From positions 1,488,001 to 1,552,000 of the forward strand of contig NZ_CP038020.1 in assembly GCF_010120595.1 (NCBI RefSeq): 64,000 bases of DNA, in the 5' to 3' direction. Each line of letters starts with the position of its first letter. Position 1 is the stretch's first letter. Positions 1,288 to 15,707 of this stretch are shown here, in pieces. The notes below the pieces were generated by a model that was not told the DNA's origin, did no database searches, and saw only the letters and a program-made list of their open reading frames with translations. The position numbers and the translations under genes are program-made. This stretch comes from Streptococcus thermophilus. Its GTDB lineage: Bacteria > Bacillota > Bacilli > Lactobacillales > Streptococcaceae.

Positions 1288-4200
1288 TTATTTCGTACGA
1301 CGTTTTCTAAGGAAGCCTAGGCTAAGAATGCTTAGAAGACCTGCCAAAAAGAGTCCACGATTTGTCTTTTCACCAGTAGATGGCAGTTGCTTATCAGTTT
1401 GATGACTAGCTTCAGTTTTAGCCTAACCATTGTCACGATTAACAAGTTCAGCATCTCCAACAAGGTCCTCTTTACCTGAAGCCTTGGCAGTTGTTTTAGT
1501 TGCCTCAGTATCTTTTCCACCAAATGAATTGATCTTTTCTGAAGGCTGATCTACTGCCTCAGTTGGCATCTGAGCATTAGTCAAACGAATAAATTTCGCT
1601 GTTAATGGATCCAAGGTCAAGATGTGATTGTTGATTGCAACATCTGATAAGTCACTAATTCCAGATAGATTGACCTGATTTCCATCCGCCAAAACTATAT
1701 AGGATAGACCATTTGTAATCTTGCTCAAATCAAACTGACGAGACTTGCTATCAGCATTGACATAGACAAGGTAATGGTCACCATTGAAAGCAACAGTTTA
1801 GTATCTCAATACCAAATCTTCTTGAGTGACATTGTTCGTACCTGGAACTGTCAATAGCGTCACACGTGCATCCACATCTGCTTTTGATTTAAAGTTGAAA
1901 GCATCTGTAGTCTTACGTAGGGCGATTAAACCTTTGGCAAAGGCACGTGTTTTCGTATTTTCTGGGAATGACTTAGTATCAGTCGCCTTAGTACAGTCAA
2001 AATGGTTAATGGCGTCACTAAAATCATAAGAATCATGGATAAAGTACGGATAATCAAACGGATTTCCTTTTTCATCAACTAAAAGATGAGCCTTATTCGG
2101 CACCTTGTCCTCAGAAACCGGATAACGATAGGCAGGATCGCGGAACTGTTTCGTACGAGCATATTCCTGACCAGAATGAATAAAGGATGTTCCTTGAGCA
2201 GTCAAGACCATGAGGTTTTCTAGACGCAACCGACGATGAATTACAGCATTATTCTCAGGCTTGCTTGGATCCTTCTTGATTGATTGGGCGATGATATCAA
2301 AAAGGGTCAAATTATCGTGAGCAGCAATATACTGGATAACGTCACCTGGGGAATCAGCCTCAAAGTTAGTTGGTTACGCCTTGATATTGTCAAAAACCTT
2401 ATTAATATCACGTTTTCCACCTGTGATGAAGGCAGGTGTCCCCTCATTTGGATAACCTGATTTGAGGATATTTCGAATATCATCTGAAAATACAGCTACG
2501 GTATCTGTATTCTTCATCCAAGACTGATCGGCAGGCTGAACAGGACTATTTTCATCGCCAGCATAAGTCACCCAGCCCTCACCAAGCATAATGAGGTTTG
2601 GATTTAGAGCGCTTGCAGCAAGGTAAGCCTTCTCGATACTTTCAGCATCATGGTCACCCATCATATCAAAATGGAAACCATCAACCTTGTATTCCTTAGT
2701 AAGATAAGCAATCGAATCCACCAAGACACGACGACTCATATAGTGAGTCGTGCCTAGACGGACCACCTCCAAAACTCGAACGTGGTGTGCCATCAGCATC
2801 CATAAAGTGATAGTAATTTGGCTCAAGGTCTTCAAAAATAGCTGTCTTGGCTGTGTGATTGTAGACTACATCCAAGATAACATCCATACCGTGGGCATGA
2901 ATAGCAGAAACTAAATTCTTGAATTCTTCGATACGTTTAGCTGGATCACTTGGCTTTTCAGAATACATACCCGTCAAAGAGAAATAGTTTTGTGGGTCAT
3001 AACCCCAGTTATAGTTACTGTTACTTGATGCATGGGCATCCAAACGCTTCCCATTTTGCATTTCATTGACAAAATAGTAGCTTAATACTGGCAAAAGCTG
3101 AATATGGGTTACGCCAAGGTCTTTAAGATAATCCAAACGCTCCGGCAAAGGCTGCAAAAGTCCCAAACTGGTGTTTCAATTCAGCTGAAATAGCCTTATC
3201 AGAGGTAAAATCACGGACATGATCCTCATAAATGATGGCATCTTCTCGAGATTTAAAGTTTGGAATCTTAGCGTAGTCAAGATCTTTTGGTCCATAATTA
3301 GCAAGATCTACAAAGGCAGCCTTGGCAATCTTGTGTTCAGGTCCCTGGCTGACATTGTCACTATTCCAAGCGGCCAAAGACTTCGCATACGGATCCAAAA
3401 CGATTACAGACTGATCACCACGTTTGATGCGGTATTGATAGAAATAACCGGTTAAGTTTTCCAAACCAAAATCAGTCGCAAGCAAGTCATCTTGCCAAGT
3501 ACCTCGAAGTCCTTTGCTTAGAGTATGTTCAGCAAGCACCTTATCTTGATTATTCTTATCATAGACAATGATATCTACTTGATCAGCACTTGGTGACCAA
3601 AGGGTCACATGTGCCTTAGTACCATTCTCTTCTAGACGAGCACCCAATTCGCCATCGTAACTGTAGAGGGCAACCTTCAATCGCCAACTATCAGATGTTT
3701 TAAAACTATCATTGCCAAAAGTGACCTTGTAAGGCAGATTTTTCGCAACAAAATCACCAGTTAATGTAGCTTTTTTGAACTTAGTATCCAACTCAAGCTG
3801 TTTAAGAATCACACTGTTACCATCCTTATACGTAACCTTGAGGTCTTTGAGAATGTCTTCAGATGAGACCTCGTCTAAGTTGGTGAAACTAAGTTCTATT
3901 TGGCTTGGACTAAGCTGCTGAGCCCCAGTCAAACGCACATCCTTGACAAAGTAAGGGTTGGTGTAGACTGTCGGATCAGTATCTACATAAACGTGAGTCG
4001 TATAGCTGCCGATAAGATTCGTATGATTAACAGTCGAAACATTGATTTCAGTGTGTGAGCCAGTAGGTGCTGTATTGTACCAAGAAAGGTTGCCTTAGTT
4101 GCTTTCTGACCATACAGCTACACGGATATTCTGAATCTGACGACCTTGTGGCGCTTGATCAACTACTACTGTAAAAACTACCTGCTTCTGAATTAACATT

Positions 4201-6191
4201 AGTGATATAGGTTTGCGTTTTTGTCTTAGCATTACGGAATTCAACTGTTGTCGTTGTCCCTCCTACACCAACTCGTGACCCATCATTTAAAATGTAGTAC
4301 AAATGAATATTGTACAAGCCTATTGAGTTTTTATGACTAGTAGCTTGAACATTTACCGTATAAGTGCCATTAGCTTGTCGTGTGGCTTCATACCAACGAA
4401 TGTCATCTTGGCCATCTTTTTCAGACCAAATAGGTACTTGAACAGTACGAACACCTTTAGAACTATAGACATCACTGATAATGACATCAAAAGTACCAGT
4501 ATCTTTATTGTTATTAACTACTGAAATGGCACTTACTGGTTTATTATGTTTTACATCTACAATAGTTTCAGTGACATAATGACGTTGGTTGGCATTATCT
4601 ACGATGTAAACGTCAGCACGGTAATTTCCTAGAGAATTCTTATGCTCGCTAGTCTTAATAGTAACACGGTAGCAACCGTCAGATTGATGACTAGCCTTAT
4701 GCCAAACGAGATCATCTTGTCTATTAACGAGACTCCATGAAGGAACTAAGACTTCCATAACCCCATTTGGTGCTACGATATTGCGGATAACAGCGTCAAA
4801 AGTGCCTAAATCAGCATTATTCTCAATAACGAGACTTGCACTAGGGCGAGTTTGAGTAACTTCTACCACTTTTTCAGTAATGTAGAAACGCTTATTAGAG
4901 TCATCTACGATGTAGGCATCAGCACGGTAATTTCCTAGAGAATTCTTATGATCTGTTGCTTTGATAGTCACTCGGTAAGAACCGTCGGCTTGACGAGTTG
5001 CCTTATACCAGATAATGTCATCTTGACCATTAATTTCTGACCAAATTGGAACAGAGACTGTTTCAACGCCATTTGGTGCTTTGACATTAGAGATGACAAC
5101 ATCAAAGCTACCAAGAGTTGGATTGTTATTGACAATAGAAATGGTTCCACTCAAATTGCCTTGAGTGGCATCAACCTCAGCACTGGCATTTGCGGTGAAA
5201 CCGTTCTGTATAGTCTATAGTCCACGCTATGGTCAAAGACATGTTTACCTGGCAAGAGATTAGCCGTAGCTGAAAACTGCCATGCACCAGTTTTGGCATT
5301 AAAGCACATGTTTTTGGCACTTGTTGCTGTAAGAGTTGATGATGGGTACTGTGCAACCCAGAAATTCTCAATCCCAAATTGAGAGGTTGAGACAGGGCCG
5401 CGGTAGCCTAGATTGTTCTCATTCAACCAGCTGGCACTTGTTAGAACATCAGGTTGTTATATCCATGCTTACGCATTTCGTTAACCCAAGCTTGGGTGTT
5501 ACGGTTGATATTATAAAGCATCTTAGAGTCTTCGAAATCATTAACCATAACAGTACTCTTTGGAAGGTTCAGTTTTTGTGCAGCTTGGATGTAGAAACGA
5601 GCTTCTGCACGTGCTTCTTCCTCAGTTGTGTATCGAGAAAAATGATAGGTTGATACTTGAAGACCAGCAATTTGAGCATTGCGAACTTGTGAGGGTGCTT
5701 TAGGGTTGTTGTACCAAGTGTCCTCAGTCAACTTGACAACGACACCACCCACACCTTGTGCAAGAGCACGATAGTCATCTACACTGATTTCACCATTATG
5801 GCTGCTGACATCGATAAAAGTCTTTGGTTGCACCTTAAGTGTTGGCGAAGGAACATCTGTAGAATTCGTTAATTTAGCAGGTGTTGCTACAGTGCTGTTT
5901 GATGTTTCAGAATTTGTCGCACTTGTAGAAACTGTTGCACTTTCTGAACTAACAACTGAAGATATTACTAAAGTTGATGCCGTTGCAGCCTCGGAACTCT
6001 GTGAAGCAGGAGACCGTAGATACCGCTGGAGAACTAGCTTTTGCCACTTTACTTGTAGCCGCAGGTTGACAATGATTTCCTTCAGTAACGGAAGGCGTTT
6101 GTGTCGCCACTTCGTCTGCTTGAGCAACCTGTGTTGTGACAGCCAAGAGAACAGCCGCACTATCATAGTAGATAAAATCTTTCGTTCGCAT
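1288..6191 (-). pseudogene. Degraded LPXTG surface protein: GH25 muramidase + 4 GBS_Bsp-like repeats + type I pullulanase
   Basis: One continuous remnant of roughly 1,630 codons. In order: signal peptide from the ATG at 6191 (ending near AQADEV); Ser/Thr-rich linker; GH25 lysozyme domain (about 5860-5240; FIDVSSHNG, VVVKLTEDTWYNN, WVAQYP); four GBS_Bsp-like repeats (about 5150-3990; repeating WSE...W units); pullulanase domains (about 3970-1450); sorting signal LPSTG, hydrophobic segment and RKRR tail ending at 1288. The pullulanase keeps YNWGYDP, DVVYNHT (region I), DGFHFDMMG (II, nucleophile Asp), MLGEGW (III, acid Glu) and AAHDN (IV). Damage seen: frameshifts near 6010, 5445, 5200, 4175, 3150 and 2770, and in-frame stops at 4095, 2374, 1798 and 1423. 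No start codon or intergenic gap separates the muramidase and pullulanase halves, and the fourth repeat runs straight into the pullulanase N-domain. An intact parent would have been a wall-anchored bifunctional hydrolase; alternatively two genes fused before decay. Confidence 0.85.
5209..5222. repeat. 7-bp tandem duplication causing a frameshift
   Basis: TATAGTC occurs twice in direct succession (5209-5215, 5216-5222) at the end of the GH25 domain. Removing one copy restores HSVDYTE in the reading frame, so this is a replication-slippage lesion. A second 1-2 nt indel a few bases downstream is still needed to enter the frame of the GBS_Bsp repeats. Confidence 0.8.
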
Positions 6192-6466: not shown

Positions 6467-8221
6467 TTATTTACGTTTTGGTAGGTTATGAACAGCTTCT
6501 CCAAGTACATCAGCAAAAGCCTCATACATATTTTCAGAGAAAGTTGGGTGACCATGGATAGATTGCAAGAGTTCATCTACAGTCAGTTCATTTTCCATAA
6601 TAGTTGCTGCTTCGTTAATCAACTCAGCAGCAGCCGGACCAATAATGTGAACTCCAAGGATTTCATGGTATTTCGCATCCGCAACGACTTTAACAAAGCC
6701 ATGAGCTTCATTTGAGGCGATAGCACGTCCATTCCCAGCAAAGCTTGATTTACCAATGAGAACATCACCATATTTAGCGCGTGCATCTTCTTCAGTTAGA
6801 CCACACATTGCTACCTCTGGGTGGGTGTAAACTGCCGCTGGTGTATAATCAAGGTGTGCCTTACGGACATTACCATGCATAGCATTTTCGGCTGCTACTT
6901 CACCCATACGGTAAGCAGCGTGAGCAAGCATCTTAGTTCCGTTTACATCACCAGGGGCGTAAATACCAGGGATAGAAGTTTCTTGGTATTCATTTACTTT
7001 GATACGGCCACGGTCGAGCTCAAGGTTAAGATTTTCAAGACCGTTCAATTGTGGCACACGCCCGATTGATAGAAGGGCACGTTCAGCCACAATCTCTTCG
7101 CCATTATTGAGTTTAAGTGTTAATTGGTTATTGCCTTCAACAATTTCAGAAACACCAACAGATGTCATAATCTTCATACCCTTCTTAGAAAGGATTTTTT
7201 GAAGCTCAAGTGACACTTCTTTATCCATAGCAGGTATGATACGATCAGCCATCTCTACAACTGTTACGTCAACGCCGTATGAAGCATAAACAAGACCAAG
7301 CTCGATACCAACGACACCACCACCCATAACAGCAAGTGATTTAGGCAATTCACGCAAATCAAGAATATCATCTGATGTCATCACAAGTTGTGAATCGATT
7401 CCAGGGATATCAATACGTGATACTTTTGATCCAGTTGCAAGGATGATGTTACGTCCCTTGATTGTTTCTGAGCCAATAGTGACAGTCTTATCAGGGTTAA
7501 CTTGACCAAGACCATTGAAAATAGTTACCTTATTAGCTTTCAAAAGACCTTGCACACCACCAGTAAGGGTCTTAACAACAGAGTTTTTAAAGTCAACCGT
7601 CTTATCCATATCGATGGTGTAGTTTGTTGATGCTAGGTTGATACCACGACCTGCTGCAATTTTAAGTCCATCAAGGATTTCTGCGTTTTTAAGGTAGGTC
7701 TTAGTTGGGATACATCCCTTATTCAAACATGTTCCACCAAATTCTGATTTTTCAACGATGGCAACCTTACCGCCAAGTTGTGCTCCACGGATGGCTGCAT
7801 AGTAACCAGCTGGACCACCACCAACAACAACGATATCATATTCGTTATCAGCAAGGGCTGCTTTTTCTGCTGTCGCTGGAGATGGTTGAGATGGAGCTTT
7901 AGGGACTTCAAGCCCAGCCGCTTCCAATTGAGCAGTTGCTTCTGCAGCTGGTGCGCTTGTAGAATTATCAGCCACAACTTCTCCTTCAGCTCCGATATAA
8001 CCAATCACCTCAGTAACTGGTACTGTTTCACCAGCTTGACGGGTAATCTTCAAAAGAACACCTGAGTCTTCTGCTTCAAGTTCCATGTTTGTCTTATCTG
8101 ACATGATTTCAAGAAGGATATCTCCCTCATTAACCACGTCTCCCTCTTGTTTTTTCCACTCAATGATTTCACCTTCCTGCATATCAACACCGAGCTTAGG
8201 CATAATAATCTCAAAAGCCAT
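6467..8221 (-). CDS. acoL: Dihydrolipoamide dehydrogenase (E3) with N-terminal lipoyl domain
   Basis: A 584-residue E3 that reoxidises dihydrolipoamide on E2 using FAD and NAD+. Residues 1-80 are a lipoyl domain with the lipoylation site in SDKTN (Lys43). After an Ala/Pro linker, the flavoprotein starts near residue 130: YDIVVVGGGPAGYYAA (FAD dinucleotide fold), GGTCLNKGCIPTK (redox disulfide, CxxxxC), a central NAD-binding GGGVVGIE, and the C-terminal HGHPTFSE with the active-site His. A lipoyl-bearing E3 is typical of streptococcal and some other Gram-positive complexes. It is the last gene of the operon E1alpha-E1beta-E2-E3 and is followed by a terminator. Its lipoyl segment is nearly identical in DNA to that of E2. 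The E1 genes decide whether the complex uses acetoin or pyruvate, which is not resolvable here. Confidence 0.93.
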   Translation of the reverse strand: MAFEIIMPKLGVDMQEGEIIEWKKQEGDVVNEGDILLEIMSDKTNMELEAEDSGVLLKITRQAGETVPVTEVIGYIGAEGEVVADNSTSAPAAEATAQLEAAGLEVPKAPSQPSPATAEKAALADNEYDIVVVGGGPAGYYAAIRGAQLGGKVAIVEKSEFGGTCLNKGCIPTKTYLKNAEILDGLKIAAGRGINLASTNYTIDMDKTVDFKNSVVKTLTGGVQGLLKANKVTIFNGLGQVNPDKTVTIGSETIKGRNIILATGSKVSRIDIPGIDSQLVMTSDDILDLRELPKSLAVMGGGVVGIELGLVYASYGVDVTVVEMADRIIPAMDKEVSLELQKILSKKGMKIMTSVGVSEIVEGNNQLTLKLNNGEEIVAERALLSIGRVPQLNGLENLNLELDRGRIKVNEYQETSIPGIYAPGDVNGTKMLAHAAYRMGEVAAENAMHGNVRKAHLDYTPAAVYTHPEVAMCGLTEEDARAKYGDVLIGKSSFAGNGRAIASNEAHGFVKVVADAKYHEILGVHIIGPAAAELINEAATIMENELTVDELLQSIHGHPTFSENMYEAFADVLGEAVHNLPKRK

Positions 8222-8391: not shown

Positions 8392-9780
8392 TTAAATCAA
8401 CAATTCCATTGGATTTTCAAGCAAATGCTTTAAATCAACCATGAATTTAGCACCATTCATACCATCAACAATACGGTGGTCAATAGTCAAGCAAAGACCC
8501 ATGATTGGCCGCACGACAACTTCACCATCAACAACAACCGGTGTTTGAATAGTTGCTGAAACACCAAGGATAGCTGAGTTAGGTTGATTAATGATTGGAT
8601 TGAATGACTTGGTTCCAAACATTCCCAAGTTAGTAATAGAGAAAGTAGAACCTGACATTTCTGCCGCCTTCAATTTACCAGCCTGAGCTTTTTTGATGAC
8701 ATCCTTAGAGGCCACCACAAAGTCAGACAAACTCATCTTATCAGCACCATGAACGACTGGTACAACCAAGCCATCATCTAGACCAACTGCAATACCAAGA
8801 TTAACAAATTTGTGTAATTCGATATTTTGTGCATCATTAATCAAGGATGCATTGAGGTAACGGTGTTCCTCTTTCATAAGGGTACGCACAACTGCCAAAC
8901 CAATCAAATCAGTGAAGGTCACCTTCATACCAGTCTTATTCATGATTGGATCAAGAACTTGCTTACGAAGAGCTATAAGGTTAGTCATGTCCACATCATG
9001 GTTAAGAGTAAATGTTGGTGCAGTCAAGTATGAGTGCGTCATTCCCTTAGAAATAGCCTTACGCATAGCAGACATCGGAATGACTTCCACACCTTCTGGC
9101 AAGACTTTTTCAGGTTTAGCTTCAACCGCAGGTGCGGCTGCAGCCACCTTAACTTGTGCTGGAGCACTGATTGCAAGAATATCTTCCTTAGTAATCTTAC
9201 CACCAAATCCTGTTCCAGATACGGTAGCTAAATCAATATCGAGGTCTGCTGCAATCTTGCGAGCCAATGGTGTTGCCTTAGGTTGAGCGCCCTTAAAGTT
9301 CTCAACATCATCTGCATGAATACGCCCTTTTGCCCCAGTTCCGAGAACTTGAGCGATGTCAATCCCCATCTCACGTGCCACTTTACGTGCTTTAGGTGTC
9401 GCGCGTATTTTGCCACCTTCATGAACAATAGCTACCTGTGGCTGAGGCTTAGCAGCAGGCGTTTCCACATCAGCAACTTTTTCAACTTGTGGCGCAGCTT
9501 CTGCAGCTGGTGCGATTGCAGCATTATCAGCCACAACTTCTCCTTCAGCTCCGATATAACCAATCACCTCAGTAACTGGTACTGTTTCACCAGCTTGACG
9601 GGTAATCTTCAAAAGAACACCTGAGTCTTCTGCTTCAAGTTCCATGTTTGTCTTATCTGACATGATTTCAAGAAGGATATCTCCCTCATTAACCACGTCT
9701 CCCTCTTGTTTTTTCCACTCGATGATTTCACCTTCCTGCATGTCTACACCGAGCTTAGGCATAATAATCTCAAAAGCCAT
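8392..9780 (-). CDS. acoC: Dihydrolipoyl acyltransferase (E2) with two subunit-binding domains
   Basis: A 462-residue E2 that carries acyl groups from E1 to CoA. Residues 1-80 are a lipoyl domain (Lys43 in SDKTN). Two peripheral-subunit-binding motifs follow in tandem: KIRATPKARK...GRIHADDV (about 124-162) and KATPLARK...GKITKEDIL (about 168-203). The catalytic acetyltransferase domain fills about 230-462 and ends with DHRIVDG, giving catalytic His435 and Asp439. Most E2 proteins have a single subunit-binding domain, so the pair is unusual. It sits between E1beta and E3 in the operon; its 5' end is duplicated in lpd. Substrate (acetoin or pyruvate) cannot be read from E2 alone. Confidence 0.92.
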   Translation of the reverse strand: MAFEIIMPKLGVDMQEGEIIEWKKQEGDVVNEGDILLEIMSDKTNMELEAEDSGVLLKITRQAGETVPVTEVIGYIGAEGEVVADNAAIAPAAEAAPQVEKVADVETPAAKPQPQVAIVHEGGKIRATPKARKVAREMGIDIAQVLGTGAKGRIHADDVENFKGAQPKATPLARKIAADLDIDLATVSGTGFGGKITKEDILAISAPAQVKVAAAAPAVEAKPEKVLPEGVEVIPMSAMRKAISKGMTHSYLTAPTFTLNHDVDMTNLIALRKQVLDPIMNKTGMKVTFTDLIGLAVVRTLMKEEHRYLNASLINDAQNIELHKFVNLGIAVGLDDGLVVPVVHGADKMSLSDFVVASKDVIKKAQAGKLKAAEMSGSTFSITNLGMFGTKSFNPIINQPNSAILGVSATIQTPVVVDGEVVVRPIMGLCLTIDHRIVDGMNGAKFMVDLKHLLENPMELLI

Positions 9781-12419: not shown

Positions 12420-14366
12420 TTAAAAGGCACCGCCTCCGCCTCCTCCGCCACCACCAGAGAAGCCACCACCTCCAAAGCCGCCACTACCACTATTTGAATT
12501 GATAGAAAAGCTACTTACGGTATCTGAGGCAGAAACATATGATTCTAGATAATTAACATTATTCAGCATAATAAATGGTATCGCAGAATAAGTAAACTCA
12601 TCTAGAGATGGATTACTGAGGTGGATGTTGTAACGTTTTAGGACATCACTAACTTTTTTCGCCTGTCCATAGAGTGTCGCATAAACCAAGATACGATTCC
12701 AAAGGATAACAGATTCTAGTTCGGATTTTTTAAAACTAGGAATACTCTTAATCATATTTTTAAAGCTATGCCACTGGTAATACGTTGAAATTTGAGTTGC
12801 ATCAAGACATCTCTGACGACGTCTTTTCACCAAGAACCAGAATAAAACGGTAAGTCCTGCTATAGGTAGAAGTCCGAGAATATAGTAAAAACCAAGACCT
12901 GATCCAAAGGCAGCAAATAAGAACAAGGTTGAAAGACTACAAAGCATCATTGAAAGTACCAAAGCTGCTACTCCCAATATGTTAAATGTCTTTTCTTTCG
13001 CACTAAAATCTCTATAAATTTTAGGAAGTCCTAGCGCAAATTCCTCTTTTTCTACACCTTTTGCTACCTGATAGCCGTCATTAGTAAATTGATATTTGAC
13101 ACGTTTTCCCTGAGAACGAATAGCTTCACGCTCATAGCTTGTTCTAGCACTCTTGAATTGTTTATCTAGAGCATCTTTATCAAGATAATAGCGCGAGAAC
13201 ATTTCACTATCTCTAATTTCCATGCGACCATCAAACAACATATCCAAGAAAGATCCTTCAAATGAAGAGAGACCTTCCTTTTCAATACGTGTAAGAATAT
13301 TACTATCACCTTCTCGCCTAAAGGTGAGATAACCTCTATCAATCAAATCAAGGATGGTTGCTTGAACCATATGTTTGAACTTCAAAGGACCTGTTTCTTC
13401 TTTTAGTCCTGTTTTATCGAAAGACTGATTATAAACATTCTTGGCTAGGACCAAAGGTGCTAAATCTTGAGGGGCTTCATAAAGACGTGCATCTCGAGGG
13501 AAGGAAGGCGTCCTAGTACTATAAAGAACAATGAGGTAACAGAAAATACCCACAAGAACAAAGCTTAAGATCACAAGTGGCAAGATGACATAAAATAGAT
13601 GTCGAAACTTTTCTTTAGATTCCTTGATATTTCTTTCTTTTTTAAGAAAGTCTGCCTCATTCGTTTTATTTAATAAATAAGCCTGATTATTTTCTCGCAA
13701 AGTATTAGTCATCGGCCAGTAGGCATGTAATTCCAATTTACCTGATGCTGGTAAATTGTCTACATGAACCTGATAACCTGTAGCAGTACGTTTAACATGT
13801 GGGTCTTTTCCAAAATAACCAGCGTGAGCGTAAAGCTCTCCTTGACTTGCATCTAGACCATCAACTGTGAAATCAACCTGTCCAAATCCTTTGTCCCAAT
13901 CAGAGATAGGAAACCAATTTAAAACTGCAATATCTGAATATAGATTCAACAACTGTTGGATTTGCCAAGTAACTTTGAGAACGACCCTATCACCATCTGA
14001 ACCTGAATTATAAACTTTGAGTTTAATACCATCATAAGAGTCTGTTTTTTCAACTGTAATATCTGTTTTTTCTTTCCCATTTACGGTTGCTGAAACCTTT
14101 GGGTCATCCATGATAGAATAACCACCAATTTTCCCCAAGGTTACATACTGACCTTTATAATCACTATCAAAATCATAAGTCACTTCCTGAGTAAACGTCG
14201 CATTACCATCATCATGAATTGAAAGGTGACCAACATAGGAAGGCAGACTATACTCTACCTCATCCTCATCAGCTTGAACGTGTTGCAAAGACAATGGCAG
14301 AAAACAGGCTAACAAAACAGTAAAAGCAACATATTTAACGAGGCCTTTAAGTATCTTTTTCATCAT
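12420..14366 (-). CDS. DUF2207 membrane protein with Gly-rich C-terminus
   Basis: A 648-residue protein of the DUF2207 (YciQ-like) family. Residues 1-32 are a signal/anchor segment ending near VQADEDE. The extracellular DUF2207 domain follows to about residue 240 (YVGHLSIHDDGNATFTQEVTYDF). One membrane segment lies near 258-280, a cytoplasmic part follows, then a pair of hydrophobic segments near 455-515. The tail ends in GGFGGGGFSGGGGGG. Poly-Gly tails are characteristic of this family; the function is unknown. AAGGAGC lies 5 bp before the start, where two ATG codons occur in a row. It lies 72 bp downstream of pyrC on the same strand and may be read with it. Intact. Confidence 0.85.
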   Translation of the reverse strand: MMKKILKGLVKYVAFTVLLACFLPLSLQHVQADEDEVEYSLPSYVGHLSIHDDGNATFTQEVTYDFDSDYKGQYVTLGKIGGYSIMDDPKVSATVNGKEKTDITVEKTDSYDGIKLKVYNSGSDGDRVVLKVTWQIQQLLNLYSDIAVLNWFPISDWDKGFGQVDFTVDGLDASQGELYAHAGYFGKDPHVKRTATGYQVHVDNLPASGKLELHAYWPMTNTLRENNQAYLLNKTNEADFLKKERNIKESKEKFRHLFYVILPLVILSFVLVGIFCYLIVLYSTRTPSFPRDARLYEAPQDLAPLVLAKNVYNQSFDKTGLKEETGPLKFKHMVQATILDLIDRGYLTFRREGDSNILTRIEKEGLSSFEGSFLDMLFDGRMEIRDSEMFSRYYLDKDALDKQFKSARTSYEREAIRSQGKRVKYQFTNDGYQVAKGVEKEEFALGLPKIYRDFSAKEKTFNILGVAALVLSMMLCSLSTLFLFAAFGSGLGFYYILGLLPIAGLTVLFWFLVKRRRQRCLDATQISTYYQWHSFKNMIKSIPSFKKSELESVILWNRILVYATLYGQAKKVSDVLKRYNIHLSNPSLDEFTYSAIPFIMLNNVNYLESYVSASDTVSSFSINSNSGSGGFGGGGFSGGGGGGGGGAF

Positions 14367-14438
14367 TTTGCTCCTTCAAGGACTAAAAAAGCAGCTGCAA
14401 CACCAAGTGTCTCGAAGTGCCCTGCTCTAATCCACTAT

Positions 14439-15707
14439 TTAGGCTTGATAAACAATCTCACCGTCACAGATAGTGTATTTAACACTGCCCGTAAGCTCTT
14501 CGCCTACAAATGGTGAATTGGCTGCTTTAGACTTAAAGTCTGCTGTAACCTGACGTTTTTCCTTATCTGCAAAGATAACAAGATCTGCTGGTCCATTTTC
14601 AGCCAAATAACCGGCATCGAACCCATAAAGATCAGATGGGTTGCTTGTCATTAATTTCAATAATTCTGTCAAACTTAAATGTCCTGCTTCAACTAAATAA
14701 GTTAAACCAAGAGATAGAGAGGTTTCCAGACCAGTCATCCCTGATGGTGCTTTAGTCACATCAGCCACATTCTTTTCATCTGCGTGGTGTGGCGCGTGGT
14801 CCGTAGCAATGACTGAGATTACTCCAGATTTCAAACCTTCGATAACGGCTTGACGGTCTGATTCCAAACGAAGTGGTGGGTTCATCTTGGCATTAGCGCC
14901 TTTTGAGAGTAAGAGGTCTTCAGTTTTTGAGAAGTGCTGCGGCGCCACTTCAGCAGTGACTTGTGCTCCAAGTTTTTGAGCAAACTCAACGACTTTTACA
15001 GATTCAGCTTTTGACAAGTGTTGAATATGAACATGTGCTTGTGTATCATAAGCAACCATGACATCACGCGCAATCATGCTGTACTCAGCTACGCCAGTTG
15101 ACCCACAAATATGAAATTCTTTTTTAGCAATATTTTCATTGAAACCGAGAACACCATTAAGATCAGGATCCTCCTCGTGAAGACTGATAAAGGTATTATT
15201 CTCTTTAGCTAACTCCATGGCTTTTTTGACAATCCCAGCATTGGTCAATGGAATACCGTCATCTGAGAATCCAACAGCACCTGCTTCAAGCAAACCCTTG
15301 AAATCAGTAATATTTTCACCATCAAAGTTCTTTGTAATAGTCGCAACAGACTTAACATGGATATTTTCCTTAGCTGCTGAAGTCAAGACCTCTTTCAAAG
15401 TTTCCTTGTCTGAAATCGTTGGATTCGTATTAGCCATCATCACAACTGTTGTAAAACCACCTGCAGCCGCTGCCAAGGCACCCGTATGAATGTCTTCCTT
15501 ATGGGTTTGACCTGGCTCACGGAAGTGAACATGGATATCCACCAAACCAGGAGCAACCACAAGACCAGTCGCATCGATAACTTGGGCATCTCCCGCATCG
15601 ATATTTTCAGCAATTTTAACGACTTTTTTTCCGTCCACAAGAACATCGGCTTGCGTGTCCAAACCAGATTTAGGGTCAACAACACGACCATTTTTAATCA
15701 GTAACAT
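14439..15707 (-). CDS. pyrC: Dihydroorotase
   Basis: A 422-residue class I dihydroorotase, which cyclises N-carbamoyl-aspartate to dihydroorotate in pyrimidine synthesis. The zinc-binding motif [16 protein letters not shown] is near residues 57-72; the metal-ligand histidines of the family appear in HEEDPD, HIQHLSK and the catalytic Asp in ATDHAPHH (about residue 305). Full length. It follows ung by 19 bp in the same direction, a pairing common in streptococci that links pyrimidine supply with uracil removal. No attenuator or PyrR site was recognised in the short gap. Confidence 0.95.

What the first reader, a model, noticed from the sequence alone, without database searches (positions are those of the whole stretch)
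1288..6191. A muramidase and a pullulanase fused in one wall-anchored protein (now dead)
The sequence shows a signal peptide, GH25 lysozyme domain, four GBS_Bsp-like repeats, a complete type I pullulanase (YNWGYDP and all four GH13 regions) and an LPSTG sorting signal without any gene boundary. Known streptococcal pullulanases have starch-binding CBM41 modules at this place, and GBS_Bsp repeats are known from cell-wall hydrolases. An intact parent would cut both peptidoglycan and alpha-glucan at the surface; alternatively two neighbouring genes fused by deletion before decaying.
Basis: partly seen in the sequence, partly recalled or inferred. Interest (0 to 1): 0.7.

Follow-up and report, generated by a model that had tools for sequence, protein, structure and literature searches.

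The report
Deletion-made fused gene, now decayed
A cell-wall-cutting gene and a starch-cutting gene that are separate neighbours in sister species were joined by a deletion of about 4.3 kilobases in this bacterium, and the joined gene is now broken by stops and frame changes, so it is an ordinary case of gene decay rather than a natural two-in-one enzyme.

Summary
The observation largely holds; the bold reading does not. On the minus strand (6191 to 1291) lie remains of a signal peptide, a GH25 domain, four GBS_Bsp-like repeats, the CBM48+GH13 part of a pullulanase and an LPSTG anchor, cut by six frame changes and four stops. S. vestibularis has three separate genes here: GH25-GBS_Bsp-C39-like, GBS_Bsp-amidase, and a YSIRK/2xPUD/CBM48/GH13/LPXTG pullulanase with its own start codon. 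The window keeps the front of the first and the back of the third. The joint, at 3982-3984, shares 3 bases between the parents, is in frame, and corresponds to about 4.28 kb lost relative to genome G114; no copy of that segment was found elsewhere in the genome. The joined DNA was found in 1 of 284 genomes of the genus, the window's own. No listed protein joins the two halves (lists capped). A truncated pullulanase of S. thermophilus LMD-9 is already in print (PMC3231929, passages). A separate GH25-amidase fusion at this locus in G083 is a small bonus.

The parts
5952..6191 (-). first open piece: signal-peptide-like start (MRTKDFIYY...), as in genes 1 and 2 of relatives
5447..5815 (-). GH25 domain, profile positions 1-125
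   Evidence: PF01183, 98.4 bits, residues 133-255 of the piece 6211-5444
5259..5444 (-). GH25 domain, profile positions 126-176, in another frame
   Evidence: 17.4 bits, below the family cut-off of 27
4876..5136 (-). GBS_Bsp-like repeat 1
4564..4821 (-). GBS_Bsp-like repeat 2
4252..4521 (-). GBS_Bsp-like repeat 3
3975..4187 (-). GBS_Bsp-like repeat 4, with a stop codon inside, ending at about the joint
3982..3984 (-). joint between gene 1 and the pullulanase; three bases shared by both parents
3126..4094 (-). uninterrupted 323-codon frame that crosses the joint
3384..3647 (-). CBM48 domain
   Evidence: PF02922, 35.5 bits
1801..3175 (-). GH13 pullulanase catalytic part in three open pieces (3175-2699, 2865-2377, 2373-1801)
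   Evidence: Pfam alpha-amylase match in the first of the three pieces only
1426..1797 (-). C-terminal region, aligned to the pullulanase C-terminal region of relatives
1291..1422 (-). LPSTG sorting signal and tail
   Evidence: PF00746, 36.8 bits
1259..1282 (-). terminator-like hairpin after the gene
   Evidence: consensus match only; 8 such sites found in the region, 3.2 expected

Best explanation
The locus is a pseudogene that carries a deletion fusion. The ancestor had three neighbouring genes between the lipoamide dehydrogenase gene and the EfeO-like gene (names recalled): (1) a secreted GH25-GBS_Bsp-C39-like wall hydrolase, (2) a secreted GBS_Bsp-amidase, (3) a YSIRK/PUD/CBM48/GH13/LPXTG surface pullulanase. 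One deletion of about 4.28 kb, measured against G114 and with ends sharing only 3 bases, removed the C39-like end of gene 1, all of gene 2, and the start, signal peptide and both PUD modules of gene 3. It joined the last GBS_Bsp repeat of gene 1 in frame to the pullulanase core. The joined gene then decayed, or was already decaying. Shown: the gene order in relatives, the joint, the absence of the lost segment, the broken frames. Inferred: that the separate state is ancestral, the order of deletion and first lesion, the mechanism (illegitimate recombination), and that the species is S. thermophilus.
For: Three separate genes in S. vestibularis AS012761 and the same order in G114, whose middle gene is itself split over two ORFs. 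blastn: window 5029-3982 matches L023 5618-6667 at 92.4%, and window 3984-11 matches L023 10945-14908 at 91.2%; the same breakpoint is seen against L025, and its right side against L024. A 291-base probe over the joint: 33 of 284 genomes have a match at E <= 1e-8, and only G000 matches throughout; each other listed place ends at probe base 109-110 or begins at 107-114, and G114 and G235 hold both halves, apart. The lost 4277 bases have two matches in G000, at 74% and 76%, both at this locus on its own paralogous repeats and gene start. In relatives the pullulanase has its own start codon behind AAAAGGAG. Changes placed on the window's lineage in the pullulanase part: 44 nonsynonymous to 63 synonymous, against 12.5 to 49.5 and 22 to 52 on the two other lineages at the same 854 codons, as expected for recent loss of constraint.
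Against: The joint is in frame (1 in 3 by chance), which would also fit a fusion that was expressed for a time. Pairwise dN/dS of the window's pullulanase pieces (0.15-0.18) is hardly above that between relatives (0.13-0.18 over their whole pullulanase ORFs); only the lineage-placed counts show relaxation. Only one genome of this species could be read as DNA; that other strains share the joint rests on fragment ORFs and is not proved. A metagenomic fragment (P0001) has an unfused pullulanase front with a frame change like the window's; it looks mosaic but could mean that decay began before the deletion. P0059, named S. thermophilus, shows an unfused gene 1 piece.
Confidence: 0.93

Rival explanations
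1. An old bifunctional enzyme, muramidase plus pullulanase in one wall-anchored protein, existed as an intact gene and later died in this lineage.
For: The frame is open across the joint, and domains with motifs on both sides are recognisable.
Against: Relatives have separate genes. In 27 of 27 genomes compared (25 with long pullulanase ORFs plus the two closest, out of 147 searched) the GH25 matches lie in other ORFs than the pullulanase. None of the 60, 120 and 120 proteins listed carries both GH25 or GBS_Bsp and a CBM48 or amylase domain; two searches listed 120 of 7141 and 120 of 4452 hits. The joint looks like a deletion end with 3 shared bases.
Confidence: 0.03
2. The deletion fusion was at first an active hybrid surface protein, with the GH25 domain and repeats carrying a starch-cutting core, and was lost later.
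For: In-frame joint; retained LPSTG and one sortase-family ORF without internal stops in the genome; window-lineage ratio of only 0.21, so most of the lineage was under constraint.
Against: Constraint before the deletion explains the ratio as well. The PUD modules and the pullulanase's YSIRK signal are gone. No intact fused copy among the listed hits.
Confidence: 0.08
3. The joint or the lesions are assembly or sequencing errors.
For: None directly; repeats can mislead assemblies.
Against: The joint is at a 3-base overlap, not inside a long repeat. The genome is one contig. One of the frame changes recurs in the protein clusters P0004 and P0006 (100 and 25 members; sources ena) and in P0002 and P0003 (source given as '-', which may include the window's own protein); the next frame change is shared with P0005, 336 members, named S. 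thermophilus. These clusters begin downstream of the joint, so they bear on lesions, only indirectly on the joint.
Confidence: 0.02

Closest known systems
Streptococcal surface pullulanase, SpuA type (PDB 2ya0, 2ya1, 2ya2; also 3faw; the name SpuA from Pfam SpuA_C and recall)
   Same: CBM48 and GH13 core and LPXTG end; the S. vestibularis homologue matches 2ya1 with 1523 bits over residues 172-1177 and has PUD x2, SpuA_C, YSIRK and LPXTG
   Different: the window copy lacks PUD x2 and YSIRK, carries a GH25/GBS_Bsp front instead, and is broken
GBS_Bsp-like repeat GH25 wall hydrolase of the salivarius group (GH25-GBS_Bsp-C39-like, mostly 1114-1292 aa among the 120 listed)
   Same: signal peptide, GH25 and repeats; 92.4% DNA identity to G114 next to the joint and 86.9% further up, with gaps; 9 of the 120 listed proteins are named S. 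salivarius
   Different: the C39-like end is replaced by the pullulanase core; four repeats instead of the six of S. vestibularis
psi-STER1029, 'Putative pullulanase, trunc.' of S. thermophilus LMD-9 (PMC3231929, passages only)
   Same: a decayed pullulanase in S. thermophilus
   Different: the passages seen say nothing of a GH25 front or a fusion; whether it is this locus was not tested
GH25-GBS_Bsp-amidase fusion in G083 (L024 9743-13774)
   Same: another fusion of neighbours at the same locus
   Different: joins genes 1 and 2; its 1343-aa frame is open, but ORFs with transposase domains lie directly in front of it

Membership tests
Glycosyl hydrolase family 25 | PF01183 match above cut-off | tested here: met
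   98.4 bits against a cut-off of 27, but the domain is split over two frames
Type I pullulanase, SpuA type | CBM48 followed by a GH13 domain with YNWGYDP | tested here: met
Type I pullulanase, SpuA type | intact GH13 regions I-IV in one frame | tested here: not met
   region II reads GFHFDMMG instead of GFRFDMMG; the frames are broken
Type I pullulanase, SpuA type | PUD/CBM41 modules in front of the core | tested here: not met
   no PUD match at the locus; the genome's only match is elsewhere, G000:1847957-1848238
Sortase-anchored surface protein | LPXTG sorting signal | tested here: met
   PF00746, 36.8 bits against a cut-off of 20; one sortase-family ORF without internal stops in the genome
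Bifunctional muramidase-pullulanase | one intact ORF with both domains in some genome | tested here: not met
   not seen in 27 of 27 genomes compared; joined DNA only in the window's own genome, 1 of 284; not among the listed proteins (two of the lists capped at 120)
Fusion by deletion of neighbouring genes | separate parents in the same order in relatives, sharp joint, lost interval | tested here: met
Pseudogene | several frame changes and stops compared with intact relatives | tested here: met
   six frame changes and four stops; intact relatives
Pseudogene | no translated or active product | not testable with these tools
   needs expression data

The most novel reading that the evidence does not exclude
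The locus between the lipoamide dehydrogenase and EfeO-like genes of salivarius-group streptococci is a recurrent maker of in-frame chimeric wall enzymes: neighbouring genes fuse by deletion (GH25-pullulanase here; GH25-amidase, with an array of almost identical 318-bp units, in G083), and some of these hybrids are expressed at the surface for a time before they are lost.
Probability: 0.1. Interest if true: 0.4.

Novelty: new member of a known kind. Interest (0 to 1): 0.14.

Why it matters
It corrects a tempting reading: a muramidase-pullulanase enzyme would be an unusual domain pairing, but here it is the scar of one deletion in a decayed gene. If the species is S. thermophilus, as inferred, the joint is a clean marker for dating pullulanase loss and adds a case to its known reductive evolution. 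The G083 fusion suggests that this locus may be worth a strain-level survey.

Tried and rejected
Ancestral bifunctional enzyme: rejected because relatives have separate genes and no intact fused ORF was seen. Relocation of the missing segment: rejected, no copy elsewhere in the genome was found. Assembly error: unlikely. Dating by substitution ratios: lineage-placed counts show relaxed constraint, while pairwise ratios hardly differ from those between relatives; neither tells whether deletion or first lesion came first. In one search the GBS_Bsp comparison with L024 was not usable (dN 0.44, probably different repeats paired), so L024 was left out for that piece. Codons that were not aligned in all rows, or that were stops, were dropped; only codons whose change could be placed on one lineage were counted. 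Promoter scan: 11 promoter-like sites against 14.0 expected, not informative. One search translated the plus strand, which is not the gene's strand, and was of no use. Paper searches: no listed title or abstract start describes this fusion; of the listed papers only PMC3231929 was opened, passages only. The strain-level spread of the joint could not be read as DNA. The genome-contig scan found S. vestibularis but may leave out the window's own species.
Full report
Observation. The gene lies on the minus strand, from 6191 down to 1291. Its open pieces, in order, are 6191-5952, 6211-5444, 5456-5154, 5214-4162, 4262-4098, 4094-3126, 3175-2699, 2865-2377, 2373-1801, 1797-1426 and 1422-1291, which implies six frame changes and four stop codons. 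Pfam finds GH25 (98.4 bits, the rest in another frame at 17.4), GBS_Bsp-like repeats (270.6 bits over three, the fourth split), CBM48 (35.5), alpha-amylase (53.8) and the LPXTG anchor (36.8) in the separate pieces. A scan of the own genome places four repeats here: 5136-4876, 4821-4564, 4521-4252 and 4187-3975 (genome coordinates minus 1488000). The piece 4094-3126 is one open frame from the last repeat into the pullulanase.

Relatives. S. vestibularis AS012761 (L025) has three separate intact genes in this place: 1189 aa with GH25, 6 GBS_Bsp and a C39-like end; 980 aa with 6 GBS_Bsp and Amidase_3; and a pullulanase (1273 aa from its first TTG) with YSIRK, 2 PUD, CBM48, alpha-amylase, SpuA_C and LPXTG. 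In G083 (L024) the pullulanase is intact, while genes 1 and 2 are fused into one 1343-aa frame with GH25, 8 GBS_Bsp repeats and Amidase_3, including an array of 3.9 copies of a 318-bp unit at 99% match. Directly in front of that frame lie two ORFs with transposase and integrase-core domains. The flanking lipoamide dehydrogenase and EfeO-like genes (names recalled) are found in the window and in all three loci.

The joint. blastn of the window against L023 gives two collinear blocks that meet at window 3982-3984: one to gene 1 (up to L023 6667, 92.4%) and one to the pullulanase and beyond (from L023 10945, 91.2%). The two parents share three bases there, and the reading frame continues. The interval missing from the window is 4277 bases of L023. 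It removes the C39-like end, the whole amidase gene, and the start, YSIRK signal and both PUD modules of the pullulanase. In the window's genome this interval has two matches, at 74% and 76%, both on this locus's own repeats and gene start; no other copy was found. The genome's only PUD match is elsewhere.

Spread. A 291-base probe over the joint was run on 284 genomes of the genus: 33 had a match at E <= 1e-8, and only the window's own genome matched through the joint (1 of 284). G114 and G235 held both halves apart. In 27 of those genomes (25 with long pullulanase ORFs, plus G083 and G114) the GH25 matches lay in other ORFs than the pullulanase. In the protein collection 60 proteins of 209-564 aa matched the piece. 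Searches aimed at longer proteins gave 7141 and 4452 hits, of which the best 120 each were listed. No listed protein had both GBS_Bsp or GH25 and a CBM48 or amylase domain. Since the closest fragment clusters match at 94-99%, an intact fused protein of this species should have ranked above the 93% that heads; hits below rank 120 were not seen.

Decay. Fragment clusters differ in which lesions they have: P0005 (336 members, named S. thermophilus) lacks one frame change of the window but shares the next, and P0018 (unnamed) lacks both. Decay therefore seems uneven among strains. P0002-P0007 start at an internal start codon downstream of the joint, as expected if the native pullulanase front is missing, but that does not prove that they share the joint; P0002 and P0003 bear '-' as source and may include the window's own protein. 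P0001 has an unfused front with a frame change like the window's; it looks mosaic (one contig of 1782 bases) and is left open. P0056-P0058 (unnamed) and P0059 (named S. thermophilus) show unfused GBS_Bsp pieces, so the unfused gene 1 may still occur in strains carrying that name. Changes placed on the window's lineage are richer in nonsynonymous ones than on the other two lineages at the same 854 pullulanase codons (ratio 0.21 against 0.07 and 0.12), and likewise in 473 codons of gene 1 (0.15 against 0.03 and 0.07); the two neighbouring genes give 0.07 on the window's lineage. Pairwise ratios do not show this: 0.15-0.18 for the window's pullulanase pieces against 0.13-0.18 between relatives. 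Together this fits a long constrained past and a short relaxed end. GH13 region II carries a change, GFHFD for GFRFD.

How it worked and what it is now. Before the deletion, by family knowledge: the GH25-GBS_Bsp-C39-like protein and the amidase remodel the wall, and the anchored pullulanase, bound through PUD modules, cuts alpha-1,6 links of starch or glycogen at the surface. After the deletion a hybrid could have been secreted with the GH25 protein's signal peptide and anchored by the LPSTG motif, but without starch-binding PUD modules; whether it was ever made is not shown. Today no product with either activity is expected (inference from the broken frames).

Known background. Passages of PMC3231929 (found with 'find') list psi-STER1029, a truncated putative pullulanase, among pseudogenes of S. 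thermophilus LMD-9, and describe 13% pseudogenes and loss of carbohydrate genes. These passages do not mention a fusion. In six paper searches no listed title or abstract start describes it; the other listed papers were not opened. The species assignment to S. thermophilus is inferred from the name on P0005 (98% identity over 81% of the piece) and the decay pattern, not proved.

Verdict. The chimera is real, its cause is most likely a deletion between neighbours, and it is broken. It is a new example of a known kind of event, of low interest, with a modest lead in the other fusion at the same locus in G083.

Noticed in passing
L024 9743-13774 (G083): GH25, 8 GBS_Bsp repeats and Amidase_3 in one open frame, with 3.9 copies of a 318-bp unit at 99% match; ORFs with transposase domains lie directly in front of it (13843-15482).
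   Followed up: partly
L023 7557-9806 (G114): The GBS_Bsp-amidase gene of this relative is split over two ORFs, so decay at this locus is not confined to the window's genome.
   Followed up: partly
window 8392-9780 and 6467-8221: The E2-like and the lipoamide dehydrogenase ORFs begin with the same lipoyl-domain-like sequence of about 85 residues, which suggests duplication or gene conversion.
   Followed up: no
G000:C1:1847957-1848238: A lone PUD (pullulanase-associated) domain in a 293-aa frame elsewhere in the genome.
   Followed up: no
G000:C1:890042-890302: A single GBS_Bsp-like repeat in a 359-aa frame elsewhere in the genome.
   Followed up: no
protein P0001: Metagenomic fragment with an unfused pullulanase front and a frame change like the window's; possibly a mosaic contig, or a sign that decay preceded the deletion.
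   Followed up: partly
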